Positions 7,781-61,340 of a stretch of DNA of 64,000 bases are shown one piece after another. The stretch is from NCBI RefSeq assembly GCF_963675165.1, contig NC_087377.1, forward strand, positions 12,882,632 to 12,946,631, given 5' to 3'. The translations under genes and the position numbers were made by a program. The stretch's first letter is position 1. Each line of letters opens with the position of its first letter. This DNA comes from Halichondria panicea (lineage: Eukaryota > Porifera > Demospongiae > Suberitida > Halichondriidae). Under the pieces are notes generated by a model. It was not told the origin of the DNA. It saw nothing but the letters and a program-made list of their open reading frames with translations, and searched no databases.

Positions 7781-8560
7781 AATTTTAGACCGTTTACTGT
7801 ATACCAGGAGCATGCACCTGTTTTTCAGGTCCGACAACTGTGCGCCTAAATATTAATTTTTGCTGAATCAATATTTCATATAACTTGCCTTAAAAGGTAC
7901 GTGTCTAGATTGAATTAGTCCTCTGCGTATTGTCATAATAGATCTAGCTATGTGTGCAGTTTTAGTTAGAGCTCTAAATCTCTCAAGAACGTCTGTAAAG
8001 AGGAATACTGATTCAGCAAAATTCATGTTAGGTGCACGATTGTCGGACCTCCTCTGGGTTTATTGTAGCTACACAAACACTTACATGTATACCCAAAACT
8101 ATAACAGTTGATCATGAATGGGTCATCAAAATAATATTATGTCAATGATCTTTTCCACATCAATCTCCTTATAAGTCACATAAAACAAAATGGTGCACTT
8201 CAGAAGTAATCATTGTATACTTGTAAGTGTATAGCTGTGTCATTGCTGAGCCAAGGTAGGGATAATACTATATAATTATGGTATGAATGTTTAGTGATTA
8301 GTGTCAATGTTTAGTCCTGCAGGCTACCGCATGCAGGACTAGTGCTGCCAGTTGAGAGAACCACTGGACTGGGTTGTATACCAGAGGGTAGGACTGTCAG
8401 CTATGAGTGTAGAATCAACGATCAATATTCGAGACGATCAATAATCGGTGCCGATTGCTTTGAAGTGAGAAGTGCACAACAAATTTTTTTCCATGTACAG
8501 GTGGGCCAGGTCCTCTCTGCAACATCTGTGCAAAAAATCCAACTCAGAGTCTTGATGTAG
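7781..8560 (+). pseudogene. Decayed duplicate of the 14.74-15.14 kb receptor start
   Basis: From about 7787 to 8410 this follows 14743-15143 almost base for base with indels: upstream flank, acceptor TTTAGTCCTGCAG, and the first 40 codons of an Ig-like exon (LPVERTTGLGCIPEGRTVSY). After that the similarity ends and the frame is not Ig-like. A 4-base TGCA insertion at 8330-8335 lies inside the exon and would break the join to it. This is a relic, not an expressed gene. Confidence 0.75.
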
Positions 8561-8610
8561 GCAGTGGTAACTGCTGAAGTACACAAACCGGAGATATTAA
8601 TGTTCACCAT

Positions 8611-9166
8611 AAATTACTTGTTTTTGACAAGAGGATATAACTCCCGTCTAGTGTATAGCTAGAGAAAACTAACTACATAAAACTGTAGAGTAGCTAGCCT
8701 TTGGGCTTGAACTGGCACAAAAACTGATATCTAATCTTTCTGCTGTTGCGTTATCTGAGCTGTTTTGTTGTACTACTACACACAATGCATGTTCGTTTCT
8801 GCGCATGCGCACTGTACTCTATTGCCATGTGGATCATTGATGTGTTCTTGGCAGCAGACCCTATTAACTAAGGTATGTCTGTATAGGATGACAATGAGGA
8901 TAGTGCCAACTAATGAGAATAAGTACTAGCTATCTATGATATAGATCCATGAGAGATGAAAATAAACCCAGCCTTGGCCTTGAACCCTTAAACCTATTTA
9001 GCTAAACCATAACTCAGTGTTTTTCCCACTTGGCTATCAAGGCAGCACATGAAATTGCTGTAAACCTTTCATGTAGCCTTCTGAATGATTTGATTTGAAT
9101 GATGTTCTATTTTATTAGATTAACATCAGAAGATCGGTTGCGTCATATTAAGTATATGCTGTAGGC
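8611..9166. other. Intergenic, nothing supported
   Basis: No gene or recognisable repeat. A long non-coding stretch upstream of the transposase fragment. Confidence 0.5.
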
Positions 9167-9841
9167 ATGCAAGCGTTAAAACTAAGGACGATTCAAAGTA
9201 ATCCGAAAAAGCACTTCCATTCTCCACCAGCTATTGTAAGAAGTCGAGATGTAAGCTACAAACTTTGGACAGAAGAGAACATGTCTCGTGCTCTATATGC
9301 AGTTGAAAGTAAAGGCTTGACTACAACTCAAGCTGCCATTGAGTATAATGTCCCTCGGTCTACCTTGTGTGATAGAGTTAGTCACAAAGTAGAACCTGGA
9401 GCGAAAAGTGGGCCAAGCAAGTACTTAAATGATATAGAAGAATGTGAACTTGTTGATTTTCTCCTGCGGTGTGCCAAAATCGGATACCCAAAGTCTCGTA
9501 AACAAGTCATGGGTATTGTTCAGAGGGTATTAGACGTTAACGGTGTCATGCGTGTTGTAAGTGATGGGTGGTGGACCTCATTTAGCAGACGTCATCCCAG
9601 GTTAACCCTTCGTAATCCCTCTTCTCTCAGTAGAGCACGTGCAGCTGCATCAAATATCGACACACTCAATGACTATTTTGATCTACTCGAGGAAACAATT
9701 GATATGTACAATTTACGAGACCGTCCTGAGCTATATTTCAACATGGATGAATCTGGGATGCCTCTTAACATTAGCTCTAACACAGCCGTATGCGAATATT
9801 CTCCCACTTCAGAAAATTGTAACCATGACCACCCAGGCTGA
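9167..9841 (+). pseudogene. Pogo/jerky-type transposase, truncated after the first catalytic aspartate
   Basis: The 224-residue frame starts with an HTH_psq-like segment (GLTTTQAAIEYNVPRSTLCD, about residues 50-70). A CENP-B-type second DNA-binding region follows (CELVDFLLRCAKIGYP to GWWTSFSRRHP), then the first catalytic block YFNMDESGMPLN of a pogo-family DDE domain. The other two acidic residues and the rest of the catalytic domain are absent: the frame ends in unrelated sequence within 20 residues. The transposase is therefore dead. It abuts the first recognisable part of the kinase gene, so a deletion joining the two is likely. Confidence 0.75.
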
Positions 9842-9886
9842 ACAAGCTAATTTATGTCATAACTCAACATTTCCACAAGAATTAAA

Positions 9887-14740: not shown

Positions 14741-15064
14741 GGACTGTTTACTGTATGTATACCAGGAGCACCTGTTTTTCAGGTCCGCCAACTGCATGTG
14801 CGCCTAAACATTAAGTTACGGTGCACGATTGTAGAGTTGACTAAAAGTGCATGCATGTGATCATGAATGGGTCATCACAATAATATTATGTCAATGATCT
14901 TTTCCACCTCAATTCCCTTATAAGTATAAATTAACAAAATGGTGCACTTCAGAAGTAATCATTGTATACTTGTAAGTGTAGCTGTGTCATTGCTGAGCCA
15001 AGGTATATAGTCTTAGGTTTATGAATGTTTAGTGCATGATTAGTGTCAATGTTTAGTCCTGCAG

Positions 15065-26834: not shown

Positions 26835-26940
26835 GATCTATACAGATCTCACTACAATTATCTCTGTTGTCTTCAAACACTGCCTGCATTAATTGGACTA
26901 GATCTATCTTTGACAATCCATACCCATTCAACATCTTCAG

Positions 26941-29224: not shown

Positions 29225-29755
29225 TTAACAGGGCCAATCAATTCAGCTGCTTGTATAGAAGCAAGTTGGAGCCTGTAGCATGAGTAATGTATGTAGAGGG
29301 CATGGACTGCATGCACTTTCAATCGAATTTGTACACCTGCATGTCTTGGCTCCAAAAAACATGTGTGCATGGTTCGTTCACTGTTACGAGGATAGGTAAT
29401 ACAGTTTCTCATACTTGCCACTGAGGCACTGGACAGTACTCTGATTGAATGCTTTTCTGGTGGTCTTACATAGTCTCCACAAGTTGGCAACTCAATGTGA
29501 TAAGTCAGTGAAACAACAAGATTTCATGCTAGCTACATCATAATTATTTTTTTCAACTGTATACAGATCTAAATGTGTCTACTGTAACTGACTGGATGGC
29601 AAATCTGAGAACCAACAGTTTATGTCCTGTTCTGGAGTTGGACCCAGTGGCAATTACCAGAGAGATGTGTCGCTGACTACTCCGTCAACCAATTATACAA
29701 TACAACAAACACATCTCTATCATTAGCTGGAGAGAGTCTCCCTTACCATGAGAAT

Positions 29756-30829: not shown

Positions 30830-30944
30830 TGTACTGAAGCTGCAAATAATGGTCCATGCAGGTATGTATATGTATTAGTTATTGCATGCATGGCTATGAG
30901 TGCCACAAACTGTTTATTGGCCCGTTAGTATGGTCAAGGGCCTT

Positions 30945-30993: not shown

Positions 30994-31439
30994 CGTATGC
31001 TAAACCATGCATTGTCATTTTTCTAGGCAACATTGTAGGGTATATAATTAACAGAACTGCCAATTGAAAGTGAAAACTATCTTGTCAATTGTAGGGTATT
31101 TTGCTCTGCATGACCTGCCTCAAAGCGAAATTGAAAATGGTGTCTTGGAATATAATATGGAGGAAGATGCATTTAATGCTACTAAGACCGAACAGAACTG
31201 TTTCTGTTTCAACATACACATGCATATATATCCCAGTAGATACAGACTGGATGGAAATATATACCACAAGGATTTGTGACACTGGAAATTGGACGGGCAC
31301 AGAACCGGCATGTATGCATACTATGTATACATGTATGATTGTATACGTATATACATGTACATGTATAGTTATTATTTGGCCTGACCAACAGGAGCAGTTT
31401 CGCTGGCCCTGCAAGCGGTTCACACAAAAGTTATTACAG

Positions 31440-33100: not shown

Positions 33101-33290
33101 TACAGTGGAACCCCTGTATAACGGACACCTTTGGGGAACAATGTTTTGGCCTTTATACAGAGGTGGCCTTTGTTGAGACTCGAGGTTGTTTTGTACATGC
33201 ACGAACTGTTCATTTGGGACCTGGGTGCCTGGCCGTTATATAGCAGCTGGCCTTTATTCGGAGGTAGTTGTTAACAGAGGTTCCACTGTA
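33101..33290. mobile_element. Tigger/Tc1-type MITE, CAGTGGAACC ends at TA
   Basis: Starts TACAGTGGAACCCCTGTATA and ends AACAGAGGTTCCACTGTA. A copy at about 44261-44412 lacks the left end, and one at 52787-52905 lacks the right end. Confidence 0.8.
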
Positions 33291-33788: not shown

Positions 33789-33997
33789 TACCGTATAGCG
33801 GGTAAGTTTCGTGGGGTAAAAAATTCGTTCAACTCGAGAAACAGTGGTTTTCGTGAGTAAAAATTTCGTTTAGTCTCGTGGCTGCACGGCATTCCTACGT
33901 TCCGATAAGCGACGCCTACGTTAACATTTCGTGGAGGTCAGCCTGCCCACGAAAATAACAAATATTTTACCCCACGAAAATTACCCGCTATATACGG
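33789..33997. repeat. MITE, CCGTATAGCGGG family
   Basis: Starts TACCGTATAGCGGGTAAGTT and ends AAAATTACCCGCTATATACGGTA. The same insertion is at 53368-53577; the corresponding place near 45608 has no MITE but a TAATTATA in its stead. Confidence 0.8.
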
Positions 33998-35360: not shown

Positions 35361-37420
35361 ATGAGTATGCCAAGTTGCAGCAAGGTAAAAGATATATACT
35401 TCTGCATGTATAAATATAAATACTCTCATGAATATTGATTGCTTCACCCTGCATCGTAGATTATACAATTGGTCCTGACTTCATGCATGGGTACTGCTAG
35501 CAAATCAACTGGGTAAGTGTTTATAGTATAGTACACCTGCTATATGATGCCCAATTCATAAAGGCTGCTGGTAGATCTACTGAGAAAAATATTACTTATC
35601 CAGAAGCAGAGTAAATCCCTTTGGCTTTCATTGTCTGTTTTTAATTGTCTATAATAATTGTCCAGATGCCGTAAATGAACATTCTGTTGATGAAGTGTGC
35701 AAACAGTTTGCCCTGGAGAGTTGGTTTCTCTAATTTGCACTCATGACAATGTTGGTGGTCAACAAACTCACTGGATCGTCAGTGGCTCTCAGCCTTGTGA
35801 TGAATTTGTAAGCCACTTCACTGATTCGACTGAAGACATGTGTGGTTCGTTCACTATTACGAGGATAGGTAATACAGTTTTTACATTATACTCAACTATT
35901 CAAATACCTGCCACTGAGGCACTGGACGGTACTCTGATTGAGTGCTTTTCTGGTGCTCTTACATCGTCTCCACAAGTTGGCAACATCACACTGAATGTGA
36001 TAGGTAAGTCATTGCTAGCTGCAGCCTACCTTTTTGTACTGCTACAGATATAAATGCATTGCCTGTAACTGCCTGGGTGGCAAATCTGAGAACTAACAAT
36101 TTATGTTCTGTTCTGGAGTGGGACCCACTGGACGCACCATACCAAAGATGTGTTACTGGATACACTATCAACCTGAATGGAACAGTGTACAATACCACAA
36201 ACACATCTCTATCATTAGCTGGAGAGAGCCTCTCTTACTGTGAGACTCAGACAGTGACTGTGACACCACTCACACTCAATGGACTCTTATCGCCAGATAC
36301 CTCAAATATCACAGTGATCAATAGAGGTGCCTGTAATGCGACAGCATTATTGTTCAATTTGTGTGTCATAATTTTTAGATTTGGGGACTCCAGCATTATC
36401 TGCCTCCTTCACCATCCATACTGAAGTGCTACTGAAGCTGCAAATAATGGTCCATGCATGTGTGTATTAGTTATTACATGGCTATGAGTGCCACGAACTG
36501 TTTATTGGCCCGGTATAAGATAAGATTGTGGTCAAGGGCCTTTAGATTTTGGTGTTTATTGGCCCGGTAGAAGATAAGATTGTGGTCAAGGGCCTTTAGA
36601 TTTTGGTGGCTGGAATTACGTAATAACCAGTGGCGTAGGCAAAGGGGGGCTCACGGGGCTAGAGCCCCCCCCCTTTTGTGCTCCATCAACTCCAACTTAG
36701 CTTGTATCACTGTGATCTGTCAATCTATTCTGCACTGTACTGATCTATTCTGCACTGATTTGAGCCCTGCCCTTCCCAAAATCCTGGCTCTACGCCACTG
36801 ATAACTGCATGGAAACCAGCATATGCTGCATAGCAAACTTCCCACAAGGATCACAATAATATTTACGTCAAGAGTGTGTCCCTATATAAAAGCAGTATAA
36901 TTATAGTTGACAGTTTGGGTGCGAGGTGAGTTTCTCTCTCCAGAGGTCAATTTTCTGTATGCCAGAATACATGCAGCCATATATTGGCATTGCTCAAAAA
37001 GGCAACAAAATTAATATGTATATATTGCATGTCCTCATATTTACTATTAGCTATTATCTCTACAGGAAATTTCGACTGATATTGCACCCATTCAATCGAT
37101 TTCTCAGACCAATCTCCTGGAGATGCTTACACAGTGTGTGTGATGTTCAGAAACAAGGACTGCTCTGCAATCAACTCCACTACTGTGACTGGTAAAAATG
37201 CATATGCTGGCATATCATCAAATTCATGATTTCGTATCTTTCAGTTTTATCTTTCTACGTGTTTAATCGTAGTTAGCCCGCTATGAGAATTATATCATTT
37301 ACACTGTAACTCATGCTCAAATGAAAAACATGTATAATACACTCATGCAGAATACACTCATGCAAAATCTGTGCGGTCCCTCTCGACTGGTGAAGCAGTG
37401 GCATATGCATTTGCATTGTT
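35361..37420 (+). pseudogene. Broken Ig/FN3 receptor (three separate lesions)
   Basis: Exons 35361-35384 and 35460-35512 (signal peptide), 35666-36003 (Ig), 36048-36326 (FN3), 36379-36455 (linker) and 37063-37190 (second FN3, internal deletion) correspond to 47052-50002. Lesions: a TGCA insertion in the signal exon at 35484-35489, one base missing near 35694 in the Ig exon, and a membrane exon near 37368 with a damaged acceptor that is cut off after GEAVAYAF. A 173-bp element also sits in the linker intron. It cannot encode a receptor. Confidence 0.85.
36628..36800. mobile_element. hAT-like short element, CAGTGGCGTAG ends
   Basis: Starts CAGTGGCGTAGG and ends CTACGCCACTG, flanked by ATAAC (36623-36627 and 36801-36805). 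The paralogous introns near 48785 and 56723 read AATAACTGCATAG without it. Similar CAGTGGCGGATC ends occur at 37991, 48298 and 56244, with inverted ones near 38967 and 60655. Confidence 0.8.
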
Positions 37421-38500
37421 TGGTAGATTATTATGCATAAAATAACTTATTGGGTCAAGTTTTATATGAATGACGATAAGAACAGATAGGGGGGCATCAG
37501 ACATCTGCGACGTTTGACCAGCAATAGCATTATGAACAACTGCCCCTTCCAGGCTGGTTTCAGACATCCAAACTCTCAGAAGTACTGACAGACCCTATAC
37601 TGTGTTGCCCGTTCTGTTTTACTCGGCATTCTCACAATGATACTTTCTGAAAGCTCACAATTAATGCAATCGATTTGATATGTATCTGTAAGATGCATGA
37701 TATGCTGAGAGCTCAAAATAAAAATGTTCAAGAATTTGAGCACCGCATACCGTATTATATAGCGAGTATATTTCGGCGATAAACGTTAGCGGTTTTTGCA
37801 GATACTAATATCGTATGCATGCTTGCGCGTCAAAAGACTATATTGAATCTGCAAAATTTCTTATAATTATATGGTCTTCTGTAAACATTTATACCCTAGA
37901 AATATATACTTGCTGTATATACGGTAAGCAATAAAATTATAATGACACTTTGATAATAATTGCAACTCTGCACAGTATATACGTGTAACCAGTGGCGGAT
38001 CTAGAAAAAGTGGTAGGCAATACAGACAGACACACAGACAAACACACTACCGTATACCTCGCTTGCGCATGCGCACCGAGGCATATAATAAACAGATTGT
38101 GACACTCATAGCCATGTAATAACTATTACATAATCTGCTTGTATAATCTGTTACAGTCTGAAAACCAGGAGGCTCTGCCCCCCCCCCCCATATTATATAT
38201 ACATACCGTATTACGTAAAATTATATATGCATGCACCAATAGTTTAATGTTCAATACCTTCATACTCTACTTTATTTGGTTGTTGCACTGTATCTACCTC
38301 GATCAATCCCTATTATGTTAATTGTGCTTCCCCAGTTATAATTAATACCGAGGCAAATTTTTCAATTCAAAGAAAAATCAAAAAGAAAAATCAGCCTGGG
38401 ACCAAGGTTATAATATGAGGGTACCGGTATAATTATGCTTTCTTCGATAATGGAACATTTGATCCAAAAGCAATCATGCACTATACTTGTATAAAGTTAG
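37400..38500. repeat. Inverted duplication with 59750-61230
   Basis: Read in reverse, 60310-61200 follows 37500-38330. It includes a C-run (G-run on the other side), the CAGTGGCGGATCTAGA end, a MITE at 37748-37926 and a degenerate TAGCCTCGA-family foldback near 38345-38405. It marks an inversion breakpoint region between oppositely oriented receptor genes. Confidence 0.8.
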
Positions 38501-41183: not shown

Positions 41184-43875
41184 GATCTATATAGATCTCA
41201 CTACAATTATCTCTGTTGTCTTCAAACACTGCCTGCATTAATTGGACTAGATCTATCTTTGACAATCCATACCCATTCAACATCTTCAGCACATTGAGAG
41301 CATTGATCAAAGCATAGATAAAAGTGAGAATCTATAATTATGGTTGAGACCAATCACGAATGTCATGTAAACTTGCAGTTACTGCTCTTATAATCCATGT
41401 TAATTTCACTCCTGCAAACAGCTGAGTATATAAGTGTGCATCTAGACTACATGCTAATTATCTGCATGAAACTACGTAACAATGATGCAATCTGAGCACA
41501 ATAGTATGATTTTGAATTCATGCCTCTATGCCCTAGATGCTCTCCTGATGGAATGGATGGAGAGGCTATAATTATGCTAACAGTGTGTCCTAGAGAGTTG
41601 GTTTCGCTATACAACCTGCAGCCATGACAATAGATTGATAGTGAACAACATTGATGGACAATAATTATTAGTGGAAGTGTATTTTACAATCGTTTAGTGA
41701 GCCACACTCATTTCATGGTTTCACAGAAGACACATGCATGCAAAATATTATTTGAATGGACGTCTGTCAAGTTGTAGAACGCTCATTTGCAATAAAAGGC
41801 GTGTGCATCCATCAATTCTTGACGATTGCATGTGAATGGATTACACGTGAACAATCTTCAACAATCTGATAATCAATTGATTTATTATCAGAAATTGATT
41901 TGATCGATAATAAATTTTTTTATGATTTATGAATTGTTGTGGACCAGCTTTGATGTGATTGATGTAATAGCTCAATTACAGGCCATCCTCACAATTATAA
42001 GCGGCCTGGAATCGAGGGTCTTGATTAGCTATCTCATATGATAGGTTGATCAGTCATATGACTATAACGCAGAAGCGAGACACATCAAAAATTATAGAGA
42101 AAGGCCCATTGTCACAAAATTGTGGTGTTTTTCAGTGAAAGAATAATTATAGATCTACATGTATATAATTATATATTATAGCCTCTATTCCAGGCCGAGT
42201 TTTTGCTTTTATAACGGTTAGGTAAATGTAGTTATAAAAACGAAAACTCGGTCTGGGATCGAGGCTATACATGTATAGCTATAATTGATTCTGCGGTAAT
42301 AATTATGTCTACAATCTCATTAAAATTAAGTCAGGTCCTTCAATTATTTTTTATATATAGTTATTAGCCTAGCTAAGTTGTCATCGTTTAATCGGCTCCT
42401 CTTAATCTCGTCTTAATCAATTGACTGAATGAGCGTTTTAAGTTCAGGCAAGGGCATGACAGACTAAACATGTTTCAGGAGTTCTAGAATATAGTGAAAC
42501 AAGCTTGTCACTTCACCGAACATTCTTTTAACAGGGCCAATCAATTCAGCTGCTTGTATAGAAGCAAGTTAGAGCCTGTGGCATGAGTAATGTATGTAGA
42601 GGGCATGGACTGCATGCACTTTCAATCGAATTTGTACACCTGTCTTGGCTCCAAAAAACATGTGTGGTTCGTTCACTATTACGAGGATAGGTAATACAGT
42701 TTCTCATACTTGCCACTGAGGCACTGGACAATACTCTGATTGAATGCTTTTCTGGTGGTCTTACATAGTCTCCACAAGTTGGCAACACCACACTCAATGT
42801 GATAAGTCAGTGAAACAACAAGTTTCATGCTAGCTACACCATAATAATTTTTTGCAACTGTATACAGATCTAAATGTGTCTACTGTAACTGACTGGATGG
42901 TAAATCGTAATAAGTATATATTTTTCTCAGTAGATCTACCAGCAGCCTTTATGAATTGGGCATCATATAGCAGGTGTACTATACTATAAACATCTCTATC
43001 ATTAGCTGGAGAGAGTCTCCCTTACCATGAGAATAAGACAGTGACTGTGACACCATTCACACGAAATGCACTCTTATTTCCTGACACCTCAAATGTCACG
43101 GTGATCAATATATAGAGGCCCGGGGGGGTGCATGTAATGCGACAGCATTATTCAGTCAATTTGAGTGTCACATTATTCAGATATAGGGACTCCAGCATTA
43201 TCCGCCTCCTTCACCATCTATAATTATACTAAAGCTGCAAATAATGGTCCATGCAGGTATGTATGTATTAGTTATTGCATGCATGGCTATGAGTGCCACA
43301 AACTGTTTATTGGCCCGTTAGTATGGTCAAGGGTCTTTAGCCCGAGATCATTATCTAGCGTTATTTTAGAGACAAATCAGCCTGGGAACGAGGCTACGTA
43401 TGCTAAACCATGCATTGTCATTTTTCTAGGCAACATTGTAGGGTATATAATTAACAGAACTGCCAATTAAAAGTGAAAACTATCTTGTCAATTGTAGGGT
43501 ATTTTGCTCTGACCTGCCTCAAATCGAAATTGAAAATGGTGTCTTGGAATATAATATGGAGGAAGATGCGTTTAATGCTACTAAGACCGAACGGAACTGT
43601 TTCAACATACACATGCATAATAGATACAGACTGGATGGAAATATATACCACAAGGATTTGTGACACTGGAAATTGGACGGGCACAGAACCTGCATGTATG
43701 CATACATTTTATGCTATGTATACATGTATGATTGTATACGTATACATGTACATGTATAGTTATTATTTGGCCTGACCAACAGGAGCAGTTCCGCTGGCCC
43801 TGCAAGCGGTTCACACAAAAGTTATTACAGTAACACTATCGCTTGTAGGGTCGGCTGTACATGCATGTACATCTG
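39544..43875. repeat. Segmental duplication, copy B
   Basis: The shorter, less invaded partner of 25185-31475; supplies the empty sites for the insertions listed there. Confidence 0.85.
42179..42267. repeat. Foldback of the TAGCCTCGA family (copy B)
   Basis: Orthologous to 28173-28261. Confidence 0.8.
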
Positions 43876-44451: not shown

Positions 44452-45165
44452 GTGCCTGTAACCTAGGGAGTAGAATACAAACATTTGTACTTAAGTGTAT
44501 CTTGAGTTTGGAACATTTCTAAGAAATGATGCTGATATAAGTTATACCTGTGTAGGTGAATGAATAAGCTACAAACATATTCAAAAATATTTCTCTAAAA
44601 CATTGTTATAGTGGAAAATCATTTAGGTGAAAACGGGGATGATTGTAAAAAAATGTATGTAACATCAATTATCTATGGAAGTAAAATGTTTCTAGAAAAA
44701 TTGCTTCTACAAAAAGATAGACAATTTATTAACAATTACATGTGTAAAAAAATTAGACCTTAGCCGAAAAATTTACTTGAAATCTCTCCCTAAGCGAAAA
44801 GGCACCCAAAAACACACATAATGGAGTACGAAACAGCGTGTGTACTTATGTAACCGATTTTAATTCATGCATATGTTACCTCAACTATCCACTGATGTTA
44901 TGCCAGAGTTCCAGACCTTAGCCGACAACGGTTGGTGTTTTTCCTCCCTAAGCTTTTGCTCACTATAATAATTTGTTGCTGTTGTAAAAGCAACCACATA
45001 CCCACCACCTTAGGTTGCCATGGAAACGTTTTTGGATATGTTGAAGCTCAAGAATTCACCTACACTTTGGTATCATCAAAATTTCTTAGAAATGTTTTAA
45101 GGTCAAGATATTCACATTTATGTACCAAAATGTGGTATTCTACTCCCTATATAGGTTACTTGCAC
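44452..45165. mobile_element. 714-bp foldback element, inverted relative of 30126-30829
   Basis: Starts GTGCCTGTAACCTAGGGAGT and ends GGTTACTTGCAC. Flanks TGTACA (44446-44451) and TGTACA (45166-45171) form a 6-bp target duplication. The paralogue at 33320-33335 reads ACATGTACAATTAATG without it. Confidence 0.88.
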
Positions 45166-47051
45166 TGTACAATTAATGTATGCATGTACGCATGCAGAAT
45201 CTGTGCGGTCCCTCTCTATTGGTGAAGCAGTGGCAGCCAGTGTGGCAGCTACATTCACTATCTCCATAGCGATTGGACTCTTGCTGGGGATGTCTCTAAT
45301 TATGCATTATGTAATTATAATTATATGCATTATGTATTACAGGAATAGGGGTTGCTACACAGTATAAGACAGCGACAGGAAGAAAGCATTCAACCCACTG
45401 TGCCAAGTGGTCCTGTTTACGAAGAAGTTACTCCTATCCAAGAACAAATTGAGCTGAAACTGAATGAAGCATAATTATACGGACCATTATAATTAACAGT
45501 ACTAGCCCAGTACTACATGTCTGAAAGCCTAAATTCGTGTATTGTGTACCTGCATAAAAAGAATGAGTTATGAAGCTGTTTGGTAAAGATCATTAACGTC
45601 ATAATTGACTATAATTATAGTTGGGTGAGTTGCATGTGATATGGTTCTATAAAGTTGATCTCATGGCACCCCAAATCAACAAGCAGACAACAATTTTACT
45701 GAACACATTTATCACAATTAAATTGGACAATGTTTATAACTGCCCGTATACATTGAATGACGATAAGACCAGATAGGATCATTATAGACATCTGCGATCG
45801 TCGACGTATTTGACCAGCAATATCGTTATGAACGAATACCCCTTTCAGGACATCCAAACCAAACTCTCAGAAGTACTAACAGACCCGCCAGGCCCTACTT
45901 GGCACACCAATATGTTAGACATGCCGTTTCCTATATGCTTGTTTTGAGTTGAGCTAGATCGACAAGTCTATCAGGAGTACATGTGTACACACCTATAGTA
46001 ACACTGTGTTTCCCGTTCTGTTTTAGTCATTCTCAATGATATTTTCTGAAAACTAATAATAATACAATCGATTTGATTCTCATTATAATTATTTGTAAGA
46101 TGATAAATTATGCTGAGCTTAAAATAAGGAATTTTTGTATTCCGTATTTAGTGAGTAAGGGTAAACGTTCGGGGTTTTCGTTGATTAAGCACATACACCG
46201 CGAACATACTAATATCGCATGCATGCATGCACGTCAAAAGGCTATAGTCCAAGGATCTGCAAATTAAAGGTCTTTCCGCAAAAATTTATACCCTCGAAAT
46301 AATTATCTGTTTTTCATAAAACAGTGAAGCCTGCATGGCTGCCTATCGTGCATGATCGCCATATAAACAGGCCATCCTCAATATACAGTCGGGTTAATGA
46401 GCACTAAAGTCTCCATAAAATTATAGTGTGTGTGTTAGCAGGTCACCTCTTTATTACAGCAACTGTTGGTGTGCCCAAGGGTTACATGGTGGCTGCTATA
46501 ACATCATGACACAAGTATGACCCCGTGCGGATTCACCTGCGGTTTGAAGCAGGTGCAATACAGTCACACTGCATGATGAGAAACATAACTGCTTTGCATT
46601 GGACATTGTGGTGTTTCTGTAGGAGAAATTGAATACCTGTCAATTGCAAATGAAAGTAGTCAAAAGAGCTAGAGGAATACAGTTTACGGCCCTGATGTAT
46701 TATGTTTTTTGTTGCACACATTATTCACAAACAAAATCCAAAAATGTGATAATTATAGACAAAATAAGACGTAGACATAAACACAGCACACACAATACAT
46801 ATGATTCTAAGTGTTGTCTTTGCTGACTTTATTAACTGATCCATAATTAAATATTCACCTTCACCATTTTTGCCATGAGAACGTCGACTCATTATGCAAA
46901 ACTTAATGTATTCAAAATAGACATTGATGCTATTATTCCCTATTATGAAAGTATGGACACACAATGGGTGTGGTTGTATTTAGTTTAAGCTTTGCACATG
47001 TCATTTTTTGGATAAAGTCTGTAAATGTAGCTATAGAACAGTTCATAGGAG

Positions 47052-50002
47052 ATGAGTATGCCAAGTTGCAGCAAGGTAATATTATTTCTGCATGTATAAT
47101 TATATACTCTCATGAATATTAATTGATTGCTTCATCTCTACATGGTATTTTATAGATTATACAATTGGTCCTGACTTCATGGGTACTGCTAGCAAATCAA
47201 CTGGGCAAGTACTTACAGTAGTATACCTGCTATAGATGCCAAATTCATTTAAGGCTTCTGGTATAGATCTATATACTGAGAAAAGTATTACTATCCAGAA
47301 GCAGAGCAAATCCCTTTGGCTTTCATTACTGTTTTTAATAAAAATTGTCCAGATGCTGTGAATGAACATTCTGTTGATGAAGGTGTGCAAACAGTTTGCC
47401 CTGGAGGGTTGGTTTCGCTAATTTGCATTCATGACAATGTTGCTGGTCAACAAACTCACTGGATTGTCAGTGGCTCTCAGCCTTGTGATGAATTTGTAAG
47501 CCACTTCACTGATTCGACTGAAGACATGTGTGGTTCGTTCACTATTACGAGGATAGGTAATACAGTTTCTACATTATACTCAACTATTCAAATACCTGCC
47601 ACTGAAGCACTGGACGGTACTCTGATTGAATGTTTTTCTGGTGGTCTTACATCGTCTCCACAAGTTGGCAACACCACACTGAATGTGATAAGTCAGTGAA
47701 ACAAGAAGATTTCATGCTAGCCACACCATATCAACTTTATATATATAATTATATACTTTCAACTGTTACAGATCTAACTGTGTCTACTGTAACTGACTGG
47801 ATGGCTAACCTGACAGCCAACAGTTTATGTCCTGTTCTGGAGTGGGACCCAGTGGACGCACCATACCAGAGATGTGTCATCGGCTACACTATCAACCTGA
47901 ATGGAACAGTGTACAATACCACAAACACATCTCTATCATTAGCTGGAGAGAGCCTCTCTTACTGTGAGACTCAGACAGTGACTGTGACACCACTCACACT
48001 CAATGGACTCTTATCGCCAGATACCTCAAATATCACTGAGATCAATAGAGGTGCCTGTAATGCGACAGCATTATTGTTCAATTTGGGTGTCACATTATTC
48101 AGATTTGGGGACTCCAGCATTATCTGCCTCCTTCACCATCCATAATGAAGTGCTACTGAAGCTGCAAATAATGGTCCAGGTATGTAGCTATTACATGGCT
48201 ATGAGTGCCACAAGCTGTTTATTGGCCCGGTAGAAGATTGTGGTCAAGGGCCTCTAGCCTGAGAGCATTATCTACTACAAGGACCAATACTGCTTGTCAG
48301 TGGCGGATCCAGACATGCAGGTTCCATGGGTTCCATGGAATCAACACACTGGAGATCAACTTACTAGCTATATAGCTAGCAACTAAGCTTGCATGAATGA
48401 TCGTGATCTGTATAATAGAGTTACGCAATTTACGTGGGCTCTCTAATGTGCATGCTCATTGCTTAGGAAAAGTGATGACCTTTTTTTTTTGTAAATTTTA
48501 GCTGTTTTGTAACCCCCCTCTCAAATTCTTAGATACGTCACAGCTGGTTGCATTTTGACCTCTGAGATCAAATAAAACAGGGTGCCAATATCTACCATAA
48601 TTATGGCATGCACAGTTCAGGTCGTGAACTGTGCCAGTAAGGCGCATATGTCACAACTACTTGTGGCATGCACGAATTGCCATGTAATAACTACTTCGTT
48701 GCCTTGAAAACCAGCATAAAAACCACTTGTTGCATATAGATATGACAGATCTCTACTGATTTTGGTGGCTGGAATTACATAATAACTGCATAGAAACCAG
48801 CATATGCTGCATAGCAAACTTCCCACAGGGACCACAAAAACTTACAAGAGCGTGTCCCTGTATAAAGTAGTAGTTGACAGTTTGGGTGTGAGGAGGTTTC
48901 TCTCTCCAGAGGGCGATTTTATGCGTCAATAGGCAACATAAATATGTAATATTAATTTTGTTGCCATATAATTATTATTGTCCTCTCACAACAGGAAATT
49001 TCAATTGATATTGCACCCATTCGATTATTCGGATACATAACGAGTGGAGAAAATTGTGTTCCTACCAAATCATTTAATGGAAGTTCAGTTGCAATCGATT
49101 TTTCAGACCAATCTCCTGGAGATGCTTACACAGTGTGTGTGATGTTCAGAAACAAGGAATGCTCTGTGTCTGCAATCAATTCCATTACTGTGACTGGTAA
49201 AATGCATAATGCTGGCATATCATTAAATTTATGATTTCGTATCTTTCAGTTCCAGCTACAATGATTACCGTACAAGAAGTTACACCATCGGATACTAACT
49301 ACACGGTTCGTTTGTCCCTCCCCTTCACCAGCTACCCTCCCGGTGACCTGCTCATTATCTCCACCCTCTCTCCCCCTCACTCGGACCCAATCATCCTCCC
49401 CTTTCCCTACACAACCAACCAAGTTACCGTGACTCTCACTGAACTCACTGCTGGAGTCCTCTACACCTACACCATTAGAGTTGTTCTGGCCAGCAACAAA
49501 TCAAATGACGTCGTATCTCCAATCACTGGAGAATTCAGTTTGACAACATTAGGAGATATTACATGGAGGCGAATAACTGGTAGATAGTGAAACAATTGCA
49601 AATAGTATTGTTTACCTCAACAGTATAGTGAATAAGCTAGAGTTTACTAGTAGTTAGCCTGCTATGATAATAATACTCATTACTGTAACTCATGCATTAA
49701 TTCTCAAATGAAAAACATCTATATACACACATGCAGAACCTGTGCGGTCCCTCTCTACTGGTGAAGCAGTGGCAGTCAGTGTGGCAGCTACATTCACTAT
49801 CTCCATAGCGATTGGACTCCTGCTGGGGATGTCTGTAATGTACTGCATTATGTACTACAGGAATAAGGGACACTATGCAGTAAGACAGCGACAGGAGGAA
49901 AGCATTCAACCCACTGTGCCAAGTGGTCCTGTTTACGAAGAAGTTACTCCTATCCAAGAACGAATTGAGCTGAAACCGAATGAAGCATACAGACCAATAT
50001 AA
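47052..50002 (+). CDS. Ig/FN3 receptor with YEEV tail; altered exon-7 donor (521 aa)
   Basis: Exons 47052-47075, 47156-47204 (GC donor), 47353-47691, 47772-48050, 48103-48179, 48995-49196, 49250-49579 and 49737-50002 join in frame to 521 codons. Signal peptide (MSMPSCSK + IIQLVLTSWVLLA), Ig-like (TVCPGGLVSLIC to LIECFSG), FN3-like (CPVLEWDPVDAPYQRCVIGY), linker, FN3-like pair (LFGYITSGENC; LSLPFTSYP), membrane helix, tail with GPVYEEV and NEAYRPI. The usual exon-7 donor (GGAG/GT in relatives) reads GGAG/AT at 49552-49557, so it cannot be used. The next in-phase donor, ACTG/GTAGAT at 49576, adds eight residues. If it fails, the frame stops at 49585 and the product is secreted. Confidence 0.82.
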
Positions 50003-50195: not shown

Positions 50196-50489
50196 TAGAC
50201 TCGCAAGCCGTCACTGTTGCAGGCGAACAGTAGACTGGTCAAACTCCGTGTTGAGACTCGTGTTGCACAGTCAGCATATCAGAAAATATTTTAAGTGGCT
50301 GCGGTTTTCGTGACGTCAGTATACTGCATGTGATACGTAGAGTTTTCTAGTGAAACGTCACTATCGTTGATCTTGTGGTAACCGCATGCGGTTAGTTGCC
50401 ACAAATATCGTGGCAAACGTTACACGAGTCTCAACACGGAGTTTGACCAGTCTACTGTTCGCCTGCAACAGTGACGGCTTGCGAGTCTA
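50196..50489. mobile_element. MULE-like element, 68-bp perfect TIRs, 9-bp target duplication
   Basis: 50196-50263 and 50422-50489 are exact inverted repeats (start TAGACTCGCAAGCCGTCACT). Flanks CGTTTGACC at 50187-50195 and 50490-50498. The paralogue has one CGTTTGACC at 37511-37519. No gene inside. Confidence 0.93.
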
Positions 50490-50731
50490 CGTTTGACCAG
50501 CAACAGCATTATGAACAACTGCCCCTTCCAGGCTGGCTCCAGACATCCAAACTCTCAGAAGTACTGACAGACCCTATACTGCATGTGTTGCCCGTTCTGT
50601 TTTACTCGGTATTCTCACAATGATACTTTCTGAAAGCTCACAATTAATGCAATCGATTTGTGATTTTTCCCGACATGTATCTGTAAGATGATATGCTGAG
50701 AGCTCAAAATAAAAATGTTCAGGAATTTGAG

Positions 50732-51259: not shown

Positions 51260-52000
51260 CACTATCGCTCGTAGGGTCGGCTGTACATGTAGTATATCTG
51301 TAGAGGATGTGAACATTTCAATACACCTGTATAATGCTCATAAGAACTGCTGTACATGCATTATGGACTGGGACCAACACCAAAAATAAATTTATAAGAG
51401 ACCCTTCAACTTATATAATTGCTGCTGTTTACTGCATGTTGTCAGTAATAAATACTATAACAGTGAAACCACAATAAAATGCTCTGTTTATTAATTATGA
51501 GCTAGCTAAGGACTCTCTGCATGTGAATAAGGACACTTAACGCTTAGAAATAGAAGCACATAGAAATTACTAAAATCAATTTTACCCAAAACATGTTGCA
51601 TTTTATGCAGCAACATTACTATTAGACAACAACCAAGCTACACACAACCTCTCCATTAATTGATACACCCACTGCATTAGGTACGACCGAGTATACCGTA
51701 TTATAATTATTATAGCTGGTATAATTATTTTTTGGGGGGCAAAGGCAAAACATTCGTGATTGAGCAATATTTAGTCACTTTGTGGATAATATTTTTGTGA
51801 GGTTGCTGCTTGCACTACTGCAGGTAAAGGTAGGCAAGGTCGCTTCATTCATGGGTAAAAATTAATAATTATATTCGTGCAGAGTTCCAATCACGAAAAC
51901 CAAGAATATTTTGTTTCCCGGAAATGACCAGCAAAAATATACGGTACCTCTCTGAGGTGAACATTAGGTTTATTGGTTTCAAGCGCCAATGCATTGATTA
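51260..52000. repeat. Duplicated block, matches 31440-32170
   Basis: Partner of the block described at 31440; no gene. Contains a MITE at 51694-51944. Confidence 0.8.
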
Positions 52001-53212: not shown

Positions 53213-56200
53213 TTATACGGACCATTATAATTAACAGTACTAACCCAGTACTACATGTCTGAAAGCCTAAATTCGTGTATTGTGTACCTGCATAAAAGGC
53301 AGAGAATGAATGTAAGCTGTTTTGAATTGTTTGGTAAAGATCATTAATTAACGTCATAAAATTGACTACCGTATAGCAGGTAAGTTTCGTGGGGTAAAAA
53401 ATCGTTCAACTCGAGAAATGGTGGTTTTCGTGAGTAAAAATTTCGTTTAGTCTCGTGGCTGCACGGCATTCCTACGTTCCGATAAGCAACGCCTACGTTA
53501 ACATTTCGTGGAGGTCAGCCTGCCCACGAAAATAACAAATATTTTACCCCACGAAAATTACCCGCTATACGGTATATAGTTGGGTGAGTTGCATGTGATA
53601 TGGTTCTATAAAATTGATCATAGCACCCCAAATCAACAAGCAGACAACAATTTTACTAATGAATTATTATCACAATTAATTTTGTTAAATTAGACAATGT
53701 TTATAACTGCCCGTATACATTGAATGACGATAAGACCAGATAGGAGCATTAGACATCTGCGATGTATTTGACCAGCAATATCATTATGAACGAATACCCC
53801 TTTCAGGACATCCAAAACCAAACTCTCAGAAGTACTAACAGACCCGCCAGGCCCTACTTGGCACACCAATATGTTAGACATGCCGTTTCCTATATATGCT
53901 TGTTTTGAGTTGAGCTAGATCGACAAGTCTATCAGGAGTACATGTGTATACACACCTATATAGTAACACTGTGTTTCCCGTTCTGTTTTAGTCATTCTCA
54001 ATGATATTTTCTGAAAGCTAATAATGCAATCGATTTGATTCTCATTATAATTATTTGTAAGATGATATGCTGAGCTTAAAATAAGTATTCCGTATTTAGT
54101 GAGTAAGGGTAAACATTCGGGGTTTTCGTTGATTAAGCACATACACCGCGAACATACTAATATCGCATGCATGCATGCACGTCAAAAGTCCAAGGATCTG
54201 CAAATTAAAGGTCTTTCCACAAAAGTTTATACCCTCGAAATACTTATCTGTTTTTCATAAAACAGTGAAGCTTGCATGGCTGCCTATCATGCATGATTGC
54301 CACATAAGCAGGCCATCCTCAATATGCAGCCAGGTTAATGAGCACTAAAGTCTCCATACAATTATAGTGTGTGTGTTAGCAGGTCACCTCTTTATTACAG
54401 CAACTGTTGGTGTGCCCAAGGGTTACATGGTGGCTGCTATAACATCATGACACAAATATGACCCCGTGCGGATTCACCTGCGGTTTGAAGTAGGTGCAAC
54501 ACACTCACACTGCATGATGAGAAACATAACTGCTTTGCATTGGACATTGTGGTGTTTCTGTAGGAGAAATTGAATACCTGTCAATTGCAAATGAAAGTAG
54601 TCAAAAGAGCTAGAGGAATACAGTTTACAAAGCTCTTATTAGGCCCTGATGTATATTATGCTTTTTGTTGTACACATTATTCACAAACAAAATCCAAAAA
54701 TGTGATAATTATAGACAAAATAAGACGTAGACATAAACACAGCACACACAATACATATGATTCTAAGTGTTGTCGTTGCTGACTTTATTAACTGATCCAT
54801 AATTAAATATTCACCTTCACCATTTTTGCCATGAGAATGTCGACTCGTTATGCAAAACTTAATGTATTCAAAATAGACATTGATGCCTATTATTGAAAGT
54901 AGACTATGGACACACAATGGGTGTGGTTGTATTTAGTTTAAGCTTTGCACATGTCATTTTTTGGATAAAGTCTGTAAATTTAGCTATAGAACAGTTCATA
55001 GGAGATGAGTATGCCAAGTTGCAGCAAGGTAATATATTTCTGCATGTATAATTATATACTCTCTTGAGATTGCTTCATCTCTACATGGTATTTTATAGAT
55101 TATACAATTGGTCCTGACTTCATGGGTACTGCTAGCAAATCAACTGGGTAAGTACTTACAGTAGTATACCTGCTATAGATGCCAGATTCATTTAAGGCTT
55201 CTGGTATAGATCTATATGTAAATATACTGAGAAAAGTATTACTATCCAGAAGCAGAGCAAATCTCTTCGGCTTTTACTATCTGTTTTTAATAAATTGTCC
55301 AGATGCCGTGAATGAACATTCTGTTGATGAAGGTGTGCAAACAGTTTGCCCTGGAGAGTTGGTTTCGCTAATTTGCATTCATGACAATGTTGCTGGTCAA
55401 CTAACTCGCTGGATTGTCAGTGGCTCTCAGCCGTGTGATGAATTTGTGGCCCACTTCACTGATTCGACTGAAGACATGTGTGGTTTGTTCACTATTACGA
55501 GGATAGGTAATACAGTTTCTACATTATACTCAACTATTCAAATACCTGTCACTGAGGCACTGCATGGATGGTACTCTAATTGAATGTTTTTTTGGTGGTC
55601 TTACATCGTCTCCACAAGTTGGCAACACCACACTGAATGTGATAAGTCAGTGAAACAACAAGATTTCATGCTAGCCACACCATATCAACTTTATATATAT
55701 ACTTTCAACTGTTACAGATCTAACTGTGTCTACTGTAACTGACTGGATGGCTAACCTGAGAACCAACAGTTTATGTCCTGTTCTGGAGTGGGACCCAGTG
55801 GACCAACCTTACCAGAGATGTGTCATCGGCTACACTATCAACCTGAATGGAACAGTGTACAATACCACAAACACATCTCTATCATTAGCTGGAGAGAGCC
55901 TCTCTTACTGTGAGACTCACACAGTGACTGTGACACCACTCACAATCAATGGACTCTTATCGCCAGATACCTCAAATATCACTGAGATCAATAGAGGTGC
56001 CTGTAATGCGACAGCATTATTGTTCAATTTGGGTGTCACATTATTCAGATTTTGGGACTCCAGCATTATCTGCCTCCTTCACCATCCATAATGAAGTGCT
56101 ACTGAAGCTGCAAATAATGGTCCAGGTATGTAGCTATTACATGGCTATGAGTGCCACAAGCTGTTTATTGGCATGGTAGAAGATTGTGGTCAAGGGCCTC

Positions 56201-58427: not shown

Positions 58428-58547
58428 ATGGCCTCTCGTGGTATATTTGCTTTACACGCTCGAGTAATCAGATAAACCAGCTCGGCTGCGCCTCGTGGTT
58501 TATCAGATTACTCTCGCGTGTAAATCAAATATACCACTCGAGGCCAT
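58428..58547. repeat. Foldback repeat, about 52-bp arms, in receptor intron
   Basis: ATGGCCTCTCGTGGTATATT at the left is matched by inverted AATATACCACTCGAGGCCAT at the right; inner parts GTAATCAGATAAACCA and TGGTTTATCAGATTAC also pair. No target duplication is evident. Confidence 0.85.
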
Positions 58548-58918
58548 TGCTTAGCCCGCTATGATATATATACTCATTACTGTAACTCATGCATTAATTC
58601 TCAAATGAAAAACATGTATAATACACTCATGCAGAGTACACTCATGCAGAATCTGTGCGGTCCCTCTCTACTGGTGAAGCAGTGGCAGTCAGTGTGGCAG
58701 CTACATTCATTATTTCCATAGCGGTTGGAATCCTGTTGGGGATGTCTGTAATGTACTGCATTATGTATTTCAGGAATAGGGGACGCTACGCAGTAAGACA
58801 GCATCAGGAGGAAAGCATTCAACCCACTGTGCCAAGTGGTCCTGTTTATGAAGAGGTTACTCCTATCCAAGATGGAATTGAGCTGAAACTGAATGAAGCA
58901 TACGGACCGTTATCCTAG

Positions 58919-61340
58919 CTTATTAAACTGAACTGTCTGAAGGCCTCAACTCTTTTATTGCAGTATGTTGTGGTGTGCAGTTGTAGTTGTAAGTAATAAA
59001 AAGATACTTATATACCTGTGCATATTGAGTATCACTTGATATTGCAAGACAGTAGAGTATGTAGAATCTAGTTGTATGTTGTATAGAATGAAGAGCAATA
59101 ACCTGTAAGTCTGTTTCTTTCAGGCAGTCAGTATAAGTATAATGTGCATGTTATATATTATGCTCTCAAAACAGGGAGCTTGTGTGACCTCAAAAGACAA
59201 GGATATAAGTTGCTGCATGTGTAAAGTGAATAACTATTATTTTGTGACAATAAAGCATCATGCAATGGTCGCATAATTAGCTAAATAAATACACTATATA
59301 TATACTAGCTGTATTATTATTAATACAGCTAGTATAATAGTCGAAAGAAACGATGTTGAAGAATGAAACTCCCCGCTCACACACAGCAGTTCTTGCAGCA
59401 GTATATCTATCACTCATCCATCTATATATACCAGTCACTGCTGCAACTGTTCCATATCAACCGTCAACAGAACTTTTGGCTGGAGGAACCCATGCATGCA
59501 TCATGTTCATCAGTAAAGTAATTACGAGTTTGTAGACTGTATAATAATAACAAGGCATTATCAACTCTCTTAGTTTTACAAGCCCTGCCCTTGTACAAAA
59601 TAACCAGCCCTTGTTGCCTTTGACCTCTGAGATCAGAGTGCAACATGCCAGTATATGGCATGTTGGCTACTTTAGACTTTTGGCTACTTTTACCTGCCAG
59701 TGCAAGCAGCAACCAGATCACAAACTGACTAAATATTGCTCAACTACAAATATCCCCCCTCCCCGCTAAGCCTATTAGTATAGTGATTGCTTTTGGATCG
59801 AATGTTCCATTATCAAAGAAAGCATAATTATACCCTCATATTATAACCTTGGTCCCATGCATGCAGGCCGATTTTTCTTTAAATTGAAAATTCGCCTCGG
59901 TATTAATTTTATCTGGGCGTGTTTAAAAAAAGCAGATCACATTTTGTTAAATCTAGCAACAGATTTAATTAATATCTAGCTAGTTATAAGTTTAAGTTGT
60001 TTAGATTTAATGTGTACATTGTCTTGTTTCTGAAACAAAAAGGCCTCACTCTCATTGCAGAAAAGGCCCAAGCTCTCAGACTCCTGCTGTAGTTGGGCGT
60101 GGTCCGACCGTCCCTGACGGAAGGTCGGGTTTCAAGCCTATGTCATGCAGGATTGATCTTGCTGGATTATGTAACACGCTGATAGCAGCTAGTGGGTGTT
60201 AACCAATTCTACCTTGCTTGTGGTTGTACAACCGAGCGTGACACCGACCATAATTATTAGAAATGCTGCAATCTGATAGGACTGCAACTATAATAATTTG
60301 ATAATATAATTATAACTAGGGAAGCACAATTAACATATATAGGGATTGATCGAGGTAGATACAGTGCAACAACCAAATAAAGTAGAATATGAAGGTATTG
60401 AAAATTAAAGTATTGGTGCATGCATATATAATTATACGTAATACAGTATGTATATATAATATGGGGGGGGCAGAGCCTCCTGGTTTTCAGACTGTAACAG
60501 ATTATACAAACAGATTATGTAATAGTTATTACATGTCTATGAGTGTCACAAGCTGTTTATTATGCCTCGGTGCGCATGCGCAAGCGAGGTATATGGTAGT
60601 GTGTTTGTCTGTGTGTCTGTCTGTATCATCTACCACTTTTTCTAGATCCGCCACTGGTTACACGTATATATATACTGTGCAGAGTTGCAATTATTATCAA
60701 AGTGTCATTATAATTTTATTGCTTATCATATATATATCAGGTATATATATTTCTAGGGTATAAATGTTTGCAGAAGACCATAAGGAATTTTGCAGATTCA
60801 ATTTCCTTGGAATAGTCTTTTGACGCGCAAGCATGCATGCGATATTAATATCTGCGAAAACCGCTAACGTTTATCGCCGAAACATACTCGCTATATAATA
60901 CGGTATATATGGTACTCAAATTCTTGAACATTTTTATTTTGAGCTCTCAGCATATCATGCATCTTACAGATACATATTAAATCGATTGCATTAATCGTGA
61001 GCTTTCAGAAAGTATCATTGTGAGAATGTCGAGTAAAACAGAGTGGGAAACACAGTATAGGGTCTGTCAGTACTTTAATTTGAGAGTTTGGATGTCTGGA
61101 GCCAGCCTGAAAGGGGCATGCAGTCGTTCATAATGCTATTGCTGGTCAAACGTCATAGATGTCTGATGCCCCTCTATCTGGTCTTATCGTTGTTCGTATA
61201 CAACTTGACCCAATAAATTATTTTATGCATAATAATCTACCAAACAATGCAAATGTATATAATAAATGCTTCTACTTTTTACGCACATAATTATTATGGT
61301 GCACAAATACAAAGAGTTTAGGTTTCCAGACTAGTACAGT
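58919..61340. other. Intergenic between convergent receptors; inverted duplication and foldback relics
   Basis: 59385-59530 is repeated at 63720-63845 (AGCAGTTCTTGCAGCAGTA, CTGCTGCAACTGTTCC). 59750-61230 is the inverted partner of 37400-38500. A relic of the TAGTTGGGCGG element begins at about 60094. No gene is supported. Confidence 0.55.

What the first reader, a model, noticed from the sequence alone, without database searches (positions are those of the whole stretch)
7811..61122. Recurrent 4-bp TGCA insertions separate otherwise matching copies
Seen directly: aligned duplicates differ by exactly one unit, TG in one copy and TGCATG in the other, or CA and CATGCA. Longer form / shorter form: 7811/14769, 14793/7839, 15033/8295, 8330/15072, 29338/42641, 29366/42665, 31107/43510, 30855 and 43250/48177 and 56123, 33196/52871, 50580/37601, 37694 and 60956/50689, 51355/31542, 51433/31612, 35484/47180 and 55123, 55561/47611, 46349/52551, 46332/52538, 61117/37541. 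At 59866 the copy has two units (CATGCATGCA) against one CA-type site at 38397. In four cases (8330, 30855, 35484, 55561) the shorter form preserves a conserved coding frame, so the event is an insertion. Established: palindromic 4-bp changes of one sequence are unlike ordinary slippage, which needs several repeats first. Inference: an unknown process (footprint of a transposon that leaves, staggered-end repair at TG:CA sites, or a templated addition) adds TGCA and seeds the ATGCATGC runs seen everywhere.
Basis: partly seen in the sequence, partly recalled or inferred. Interest (0 to 1): 0.92.

Follow-up and report, generated by a model that had tools for sequence, protein, structure and literature searches.

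The report
Palindromic four-base insertions in a sponge
A sponge-like animal genome keeps gaining tiny self-complementary four-base inserts, most often turning TG into TGCATG, by a mutation process that does not fit ordinary slippage and looks like a two-base stretch copied forwards, backwards and forwards again.

Summary
In self-alignments of 276 kb, 4-bp indels outnumber 3-bp ones (153 against 97) and 100 of the 153 can be placed as a palindromic 4-mer. The usual form is U -> U.rc(U).U with U of 2 bp: TG->TGCATG, TA->TATATA, TT->TTAATT. A sister class, ATAT->ATAATTAT, does not obey it. At equal 2-bp homology, palindromic sites vary with an odds ratio of 38 over other sites. Of 90 palindromic events tested, 24 are insertions, none a deletion, 1 mixed and 65 unresolved. 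ATAATTAT occurs 100,191 times genome-wide against 5,899 for its mirror image, and a satellite 12 Mb away shows TGCATG and TTAATT forms among its listed +4 variants. Slippage, deletion of existing palindromes and alignment artefact are disfavoured; generic template switching gets little support. My best mechanism is a 2-nt staggered break at a CA/TG or TA step whose two ends each gain two palindromic (P-type) nucleotides that anneal. The product rule is shown; the cutter and repair steps are inferred.

The parts
7811..7816 (+). CATGCA, long form (short copy CA at 14769)
14793..14798 (+). TGCATG, long form (short copy TG at 7839)
15033..15038 (+). TGCATG (short 8295)
8330..8335 (+). CATGCA (short 15072)
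29338..29343 (+). TGCATG (short 42641)
29366..29371 (+). TGCATG (short 42665, 47531, 55481, 35843)
   Evidence: four other copies short
31107..31112 (+). TGCATG (short 43510)
30855..30860 (+). CATGCA (short 48177, 56123)
43250..43255 (+). CATGCA (short 48177, 56123)
33196..33201 (+). CATGCA (short 52871, 44323); polarised as insertion on one outgroup copy
50580..50585 (+). TGCATG (short 37601); polarised as insertion on two outgroup copies; these flanks occur twice in the genome, once with and once without the insert
37694..37699 (+). TGCATG (short 50689); flanks found 10 times genome-wide, 5 with TGCATG and 5 with TG
60956..60961 (+). CATGCA, inverted copy of the 37694 site
51355..51360 (+). 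CATGCA (short 31542)
   Evidence: automatic realignment missed it
51433..51438 (+). TGCATG (short 31612)
35484..35489 (+). TGCATG in a locally open frame (short 47180, 55123); insertion, 7 outgroup copies short; leads to a stop
55561..55566 (+). TGCATG in an open frame (short 47611 and others); insertion, 11 outgroup copies short; leads to a stop
46332..46337 (+). TGCATG (short 52538)
46349..46354 (+). TGCATG (short 52551, one extra substitution)
61117..61122 (+). CATGCA (short 37541, inverted copy)
59856..59865 (+). CATGCATGCA, two units (short 38397, inverted copy)
   Evidence: automatic realignment missed it
61077..61083 (+). TTAATT-type insert (TT->TTAATT), same rule with U=TT; insertion, 3 outgroup copies short; position approximate
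45150..45156 (+). TATATA-type insert (TA->TATATA) relative to 30140; insertion, 2 outgroup copies short; position approximate
47117..47123 (+). TTAATT-type insert relative to 35434; not polarised; position approximate

Best explanation
The genome is subject to an insertion-biased germline mutation process that replaces a short word U, typically 2 bp and mostly CA/TG or TA, by U.rc(U).U. Shown here: the product rule, the base preference, insertion polarity where it can be read, and occurrence outside the window. Inferred: a break with a 2-nt stagger at a CA/TG or TA step leaves U at both ends after fill-in; each end is sealed as a hairpin (or otherwise turned round) and reopened about 2 nt from the tip, so each end carries two palindromic nucleotides; these two added dinucleotides are complementary for any U, anneal and are sealed, giving U.rc(U).U. 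Because the product again holds TG/CA steps, repeated hits can build (TGCA)n runs. ATAT->ATAATTAT is treated as a sister outcome that this scheme does not explain.
For: Palindromic share of 4-bp indels: 100 of 153 and 101 of 165 in the enlarged set, against 16 of 111 for simulated indels passed through the same aligner and flank filter (Fisher p about 3e-15). Per-site rate at exactly 2-bp homology: 64 of 1825 palindromic sites against 9 of 9471 others (odds ratio 38, p about 2e-41). The rule reaches n=3 and n=4 (19.9 and 38.5 against 1.5 and 3.1 per 1000 sites, on only 6 and 2 type-I events, some of them pure A/T), e.g. GTA.TAC.GTA, TGC.GCA.TGC, TAGG.CCTA.TAGG (read). U at n=2: CA/TG 39, TA 13 plus 11 where TA and AT cannot be told apart, AA/TT 10, AC 3, GA 2, CC 1, AG 1. 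Of 113 four-bp events with at least 2 bp homology, 80 have filler rc(U), 17 are other palindromes, 16 neither. Polarity 24 insertion, 0 deletion, 1 mixed. Artemis opens hairpins mainly 2 nt from the tip and human P nucleotides are mainly 2 bases (PMC3528771, passages). The genome has matches to the SNM1/Artemis-type DRMBL domain (4 matches) and to the hAT dimerisation domain (32 matches); that hAT transposases make flanking hairpins is recalled.
Against: One-sided additions U.rc(U), expected of P nucleotides, are not enriched at 4 bp (6 against 5.0 in shuffles) or clearly at 2 bp (16 against 12.7); at 3 bp they are (11 against 5.0). n=1 events (mostly TA->TATA) are as many as n=2 (79 against 80), with a smaller excess per site (7.0 against 1.5 per 1000), so a 2-nt step is not exclusive. 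ATAATTAT, the most abundant product, does not fit. TG->TGTG is rare (3) while TA->TATA is common (34 of 48 exact 2-bp cases), so plain fill-in joining differs between targets. TATATA cannot be separated from dinucleotide slippage. No cutter is identified; RAG1 gave no match, but that search found nothing in its control genomes either. Insertion bias is not special to palindromes: non-palindromic 4-bp events were 12 insertions to 1 deletion, 2-bp ones 38 to 9.
Confidence: 0.37

Rival explanations
1. Excision footprints of a DNA transposon or its short derivatives with a 2-bp target duplication: an element inserts at TA or TG, leaves, and two bases remain between the duplicated dinucleotides.
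For: A 2-bp duplication is present by definition; TA-flanked elements with CCGTATAGCG ends and a Tc1/mariner-like transposase frame exist; ATAT is the sort of TA target such elements like (recalled).
Against: The filler changes with the duplicated dinucleotide (TG gives CA, TA gives TA or AT, TT gives AA), which fixed element ends would not do. No insertion with a TG/CA 2-bp duplication was seen, by eye, in the about 90 rows printed out of 1872 redundant candidates or in the printed rows of the inverted-repeat survey (arms of 14 or more, from 296 pairs). About 100,000 ATAATTAT copies would need as many excisions.
Confidence: 0.17
2. Template switching during replication or break repair: synthesis copies U, jumps to the opposite strand and copies rc(U), then returns (a micro version of inverted triplication).
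For: Gives exactly U.rc(U).U; a one-base offset would also give ATAATTAT from ATAT (my derivation, no call).
Against: Insertions of 5-28 bp show little excess of inverted copies of their flanks: at 7 bp or more 4 of 361 against 3.7 in controls, at 5 or more 64 against 46.7. The CA/TG and TA preference is not expected. Flanks of type-I events carry few mismatches (0.042 against 0.08 beside non-palindromic 3-6 bp indels, in alignments of mean divergence 0.114 and 0.138).
Confidence: 0.25
3. Ordinary deletion or slippage at pre-existing TGCATG, or selection keeping functional palindromes (homeodomain-like TAATTA, Fox-like TGCATG; motif names recalled).
For: The hexamers are abundant; longer tracts vary more (88 and 111 per 1000 sites at 6 and 7 bp homology, on 5 and 2 events).
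Against: No deletion among 25 polarised events; homology-matched non-palindromic sites vary about 35-fold less; inserts break reading frames at two sites and occur in a satellite.
Confidence: 0.08
4. Alignment, calling or assembly artefact.
For: Single assembly, no reads available.
Against: Simulated random indels give 16 of 111 palindromic, not 101 of 165; the inserts recur in several copies, in a satellite and in whole-genome counts.
Confidence: 0.03

Closest known systems
P nucleotides of V(D)J joints (Artemis-opened hairpins)
   Same: Added bases are the reverse complement of the adjacent end; two bases is the dominant length (PMC3528771, passages)
   Different: Here a second copy of U follows, both ends behave alike, no V(D)J system is known here, and one-sided additions are not enriched at 4 bp
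hAT/Transib-type transposon excision footprints
   Same: Duplicated target bases with palindromic changes between them (recalled)
   Different: Known target duplications are 8 or 5 bp (recalled), not 2; no donor element with TG/CA duplications seen in the rows read
Highly iterated palindrome HIP1 of cyanobacteria
   Same: An octamer palindrome scattered at high copy (start of abstract of PMC4390886, listing)
   Different: Sequence ATAATTAT, an animal-like genome, and a visible origin by 4-bp insertion into ATAT; HIP1 is linked to DNA methyltransferases in that abstract, not tested here
SPO11 breaks with 2-nt 5' overhangs and their end joining
   Same: 2-nt stagger; joining can be mutagenic and can insert locally inverted pieces (PMC12918824, passages)
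   Different: The passages I read describe deletions and inserts of 15 bp or more in mice; no palindromic 4-bp rule appeared in them
Inverted triplication by template switching (ODIRA)
   Same: Forward-inverted-forward order (PMC4689423, search listing only)
   Different: 2 bp here; the known cases are far larger (recalled)

Membership tests
Microsatellite slippage | needs tandem copies of the unit beforehand | tested here: not met
   28 of 41 TGCA-class events have exactly 2 bp of homology, i.e. half a unit
Microsatellite slippage | rate set by repeat length, not by palindromy | tested here: not met
   64 of 1825 against 9 of 9471 sites at equal homology
Transposon footprint, 2-bp duplication | duplicated target bases | tested here: met
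   U on both sides
Transposon footprint, 2-bp duplication | filler derived from fixed element ends | tested here: not met
   filler is rc(U) in 80 of 113 four-bp events with 2 bp or more homology; the TAATTA class (17) would be compatible with fixed ends
Transposon footprint, 2-bp duplication | full sites with the same duplication exist | tested here: inconclusive
   TA yes; TG/CA none in partly printed lists from 276 kb
P-nucleotide joint | added bases are the reverse complement of the adjacent end | tested here: met
P-nucleotide joint | length mostly 2 | tested here: inconclusive
   type-I events 79, 80, 6 and 2 at n=1, 2, 3, 4; the excess per site is largest at n=2
P-nucleotide joint | one-sided additions U.rc(U) also occur | tested here: not met
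   4-bp class 6 against 5.0, 2-bp 16 against 12.7; 3-bp class 11 against 5.0 is an exception
P-nucleotide joint | hairpin-making cutter and Artemis-type opener | tested here: inconclusive
   DRMBL and hAT matches, RAG1 none and uninformative; no activity data
Inverted template switch | longer inverted copies from flanks | tested here: not met
   modest excess only at 4-6 bp
HIP-like iterated palindrome | one octamer palindrome far above expectation genome-wide | tested here: met
   ATAATTAT 100,191 against 5,899 mirrored
HIP-like iterated palindrome | matching DNA methyltransferase | not tested
   no search made

The most novel reading that the evidence does not exclude
An undescribed germline mutation process in an animal writes palindromes: at CA/TG and TA steps it inserts the reverse complement plus a second copy of a 2-bp word, has put about 100,000 ATAATTAT octamers and the seeds of (TGCA)n arrays into one genome, and acts at up to one event per 37 substitutions between the most recent copies (16 redundant sightings to 595 substitutions at 94% identity or more; the ratio falls to 3.7 per 1000 in the oldest alignments).
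Probability: 0.5. Interest if true: 0.88.

Novelty: categorically new. Interest (0 to 1): 0.8.

Why it matters
Small-insertion signatures are read as fingerprints of enzymes. A rule this exact (U.rc(U).U, CA/TG and TA) points to a specific break-and-repair chemistry that is not slippage, tandem duplication or a footprint that I could match. It would give an origin for palindromic microsatellites, shows how mutation alone can fill a genome with a short palindrome (an animal parallel to cyanobacterial HIP1, whose origin is open as far as I recall), and is directly testable by trio or population sequencing of the animal.

Tried and rejected
Slippage, deletion of existing TGCATG, aligner artefact: rejected. 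TGCA as a 4-bp target duplication or 4-nt overhang fill-in: 64 of 100 palindromic events have exactly 2-bp homology and 3 have less. Simultaneous multi-hit episodes: neighbouring events within 100 bp have the insert in the same copy 18 times and in opposite copies 30 times, so no co-occurrence. ATAATTAT riding inside a repeat family: 126 of 330 sites have look-alike flanks, close to 115 of 306 for the control hexamer TGATTG (TGCATG 452 of 1003), and flank composition is roughly background beyond the first base. Donor element: none with a TG/CA 2-bp duplication in the printed rows. Run lengths as proof of seeding: only weak, because the excess at 6 is matched by some non-palindromic classes (ACGG 1.57, AAGG 1.37, against ATGC 1.52) and missing in two palindromic ones (ACGT 0.99, CCGG 0.86). 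Literature: ten answered searches; the listings named no report of such insertions, searches returned nothing, and only two papers were opened, in passages. Most subscription journals are not in that library. Species: one listed hit is named Ephydatia muelleri (47% identity) among 120 shown of 5144 kinase hits, so 'sponge-like' is an inference.

Dropped before counts: indels without 10 or 12 clean flanking columns, alignments under 75% identity, and repeated sightings of one site merged by position. Counts (events per substitution) are redundant. Of the 100 palindromic 4-bp events, 90 entered the polarity test. Its class II means every palindromic 4-bp event that is not type I: of its 5 insertions 4 are TAATTA and 1 is an ACGT-class event. 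The Fisher polarity test used only 3-, 5- and 7-bp events as control (25:15); 2-bp (38:9), non-palindromic 4-bp (12:1), other 6-bp (4:7), other 8-bp (3:0), and palindromic 6-bp (3:0) and 8-bp (2:0) events were left out.
Full report
What was checked. The window is G000:C1:12882632-12946631 of a 131-Mb, 39-contig assembly.

TGCA is part of a palindrome rule. I self-aligned 276 kb (window, 80 kb of adjoining flank, twelve 10-kb samples from elsewhere, four 3-kb loci fetched) and kept clean indels, merged by site: 948 events. Lengths 1-6 gave 166, 204, 97, 153, 37 and 64. Of the 153 4-bp events, 41 are of the TGCA class, 29 AATT, 24 ATAT; 100 of 153 can be placed as a palindrome, and 73 of the 153 have exactly 2 bp of homology with the flank, 64 of these 73 being palindromic. 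Adding 50 kb gave 1015 events, with 101 of 165 4-bp ones palindromic.

The usual form is U.rc(U).U: TG.CA.TG, TA.TA.TA, TT.AA.TT, AG.CT.AG, TC.GA.TC, with a few 3- and 4-base versions. Of 80 type-I events at n=2, U is CA/TG in 39, TA in 24 (11 of these cannot be told from AT), AA/TT in 10, other in 7. A second class, 17 events, is TA->TAATTA;'s broader match of 19, the base to the left is A in 89% and the base to the right is T in 79%. In the static sequence ATAATTAT is 660 against 33 expected (both strands counted), while the other TAATTA contexts are near or a few-fold above expectation.

Controls. At sites with exactly 2 bp of period-4 homology, 64 of 1825 palindromic against 9 of 9471 non-palindromic sites vary (p about 2e-41). 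Random indels drawn from words of the window and passed through the same aligner gave 16 palindromic of 111. Mean mismatch beside type-I events is 0.042 against 0.08 beside non-palindromic 3-6 bp indels, in alignments of somewhat different divergence (0.114 and 0.138).

Direction. Using copies less similar than the nearest short copy as outgroups, type I is 19 insertions, 0 deletions, 52 unresolved; the remaining palindromic 4-bp events 5, 0, 13 and 1 mixed. Other small indels are also insertion-rich here (2-bp 38:9, non-palindromic 4-bp 12:1, 5-bp 10:2), but 3-bp (14:8), 6-bp (4:7) and 7-bp (1:5) are less so or the reverse, so the method can see deletions. Queries were built from the long copy, a possible bias. 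Two inserts break locally open frames.

Beyond the window. ATAATTAT occurs 100,191 times in the genome, its mirror 5,899; TAGATCTA 12,812 against 2,882. A 40-bp satellite near the start of C1 (2,380 matches to one motif) has 233 places where the next copy is 1-6 bp further off than the 40-bp monomer; in the first 100 listed, the +4 variants are TG->TGCATG (most, apparently an amplified lineage) and a TTAATT form that could also be an AATT tandem copy. At that TG, 211 of 235 matches with four extra bases read CATG; the other 24 were not listed, and these amplified copies stand for few independent events.

Runs. TGCA-phase runs peak locally at 10 bases and are in excess at 6 over a smooth decline (780, 528, 154, 55, 27, 41, 8 at lengths 5-11), but some non-palindromic classes show similar ratios, so this is weak evidence. 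Clearer is the frame of exact 6-base runs: TGCATG/CATGCA 399 (two strands merged) against ATGCAT 87 and GCATGC 42; TAATTA 433 against ATTAAT 62.

Mechanism. rc(U) beside U suggests copying from the opposite strand. A fixed element end cannot supply a filler that follows U. Generic inverted template switching predicts longer inverted inserts, which are at most in modest excess. Palindromic end nucleotides on both sides of a 2-nt staggered break do predict U.rc(U).U, and two bases is the dominant Artemis opening distance described in PMC3528771 (passages). The genome has DRMBL and hAT matches. Weak points: one-sided additions are not enriched at 4 bp, n=1 events are as many as n=2, ATAATTAT is unexplained, +2 events differ between TA and TG, and no enzyme is known. 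I hold the product rule at about 0.93 and this mechanism at 0.37 (lowered from 0.40 on rechecking, for the n=1 count).

Limits. One assembly, no reads, no relatives; most events come from one duplicated stretch of C1 (144 kb, 194 kb); the organism is inferred to be sponge-like from protein hits.

Noticed in passing
whole genome (G000): ATAATTAT is present 100,191 times, 17 times its mirror image: an animal counterpart to a highly iterated palindrome.
   Followed up: partly
G000:C1 about 38,500-600,000 (listed part) and L013:2460-3720: 40-bp satellite, monomer about TTCACTAGCAATAGTTTTACGTTCCCGTGAGTGGGTTCAA, 2,380 matches to one motif genome-wide; a TGCATG-bearing variant monomer has been amplified.
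   Followed up: partly
window about 10682-11782, 26940-27258 and 50196-50489 (coordinates minus 40,000): Inverted-repeat elements with 10-bp target duplications and ends starting TAGCCTCG, TAGTTGGG or TAGACTCG; family not identified.
   Followed up: no
window about 33791-34003 and 53369-53574: Short elements with CCGTATAGCG-type ends at TA targets.
   Followed up: no
window 21428-22408 (-): Open frame with DDE_3, HTH_23 and HTH_Tnp_Tc3_2 matches, Tc1/mariner-like transposase.
   Followed up: no
window 13129-14061 (+): Protein-kinase-like open frame without introns, with relatives of up to 84% identity in the protein database.
   Followed up: partly
276-kb sample: GCGCATGCGC and TGCGCATGCGCA palindromes far above expectation (26 and 24, both strands counted), and TACATGTA 8-fold.
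   Followed up: no
window 25182-63164: Tandem and inverted array of diverged copies; open frames in it look extracellular, and two copies carry frame-breaking inserts.
   Followed up: no
Indels of 6-10 bp are also frequent, 10-bp ones about as common as 8-bp ones (44 and 38; 45 and 44); not explained.
   Followed up: no
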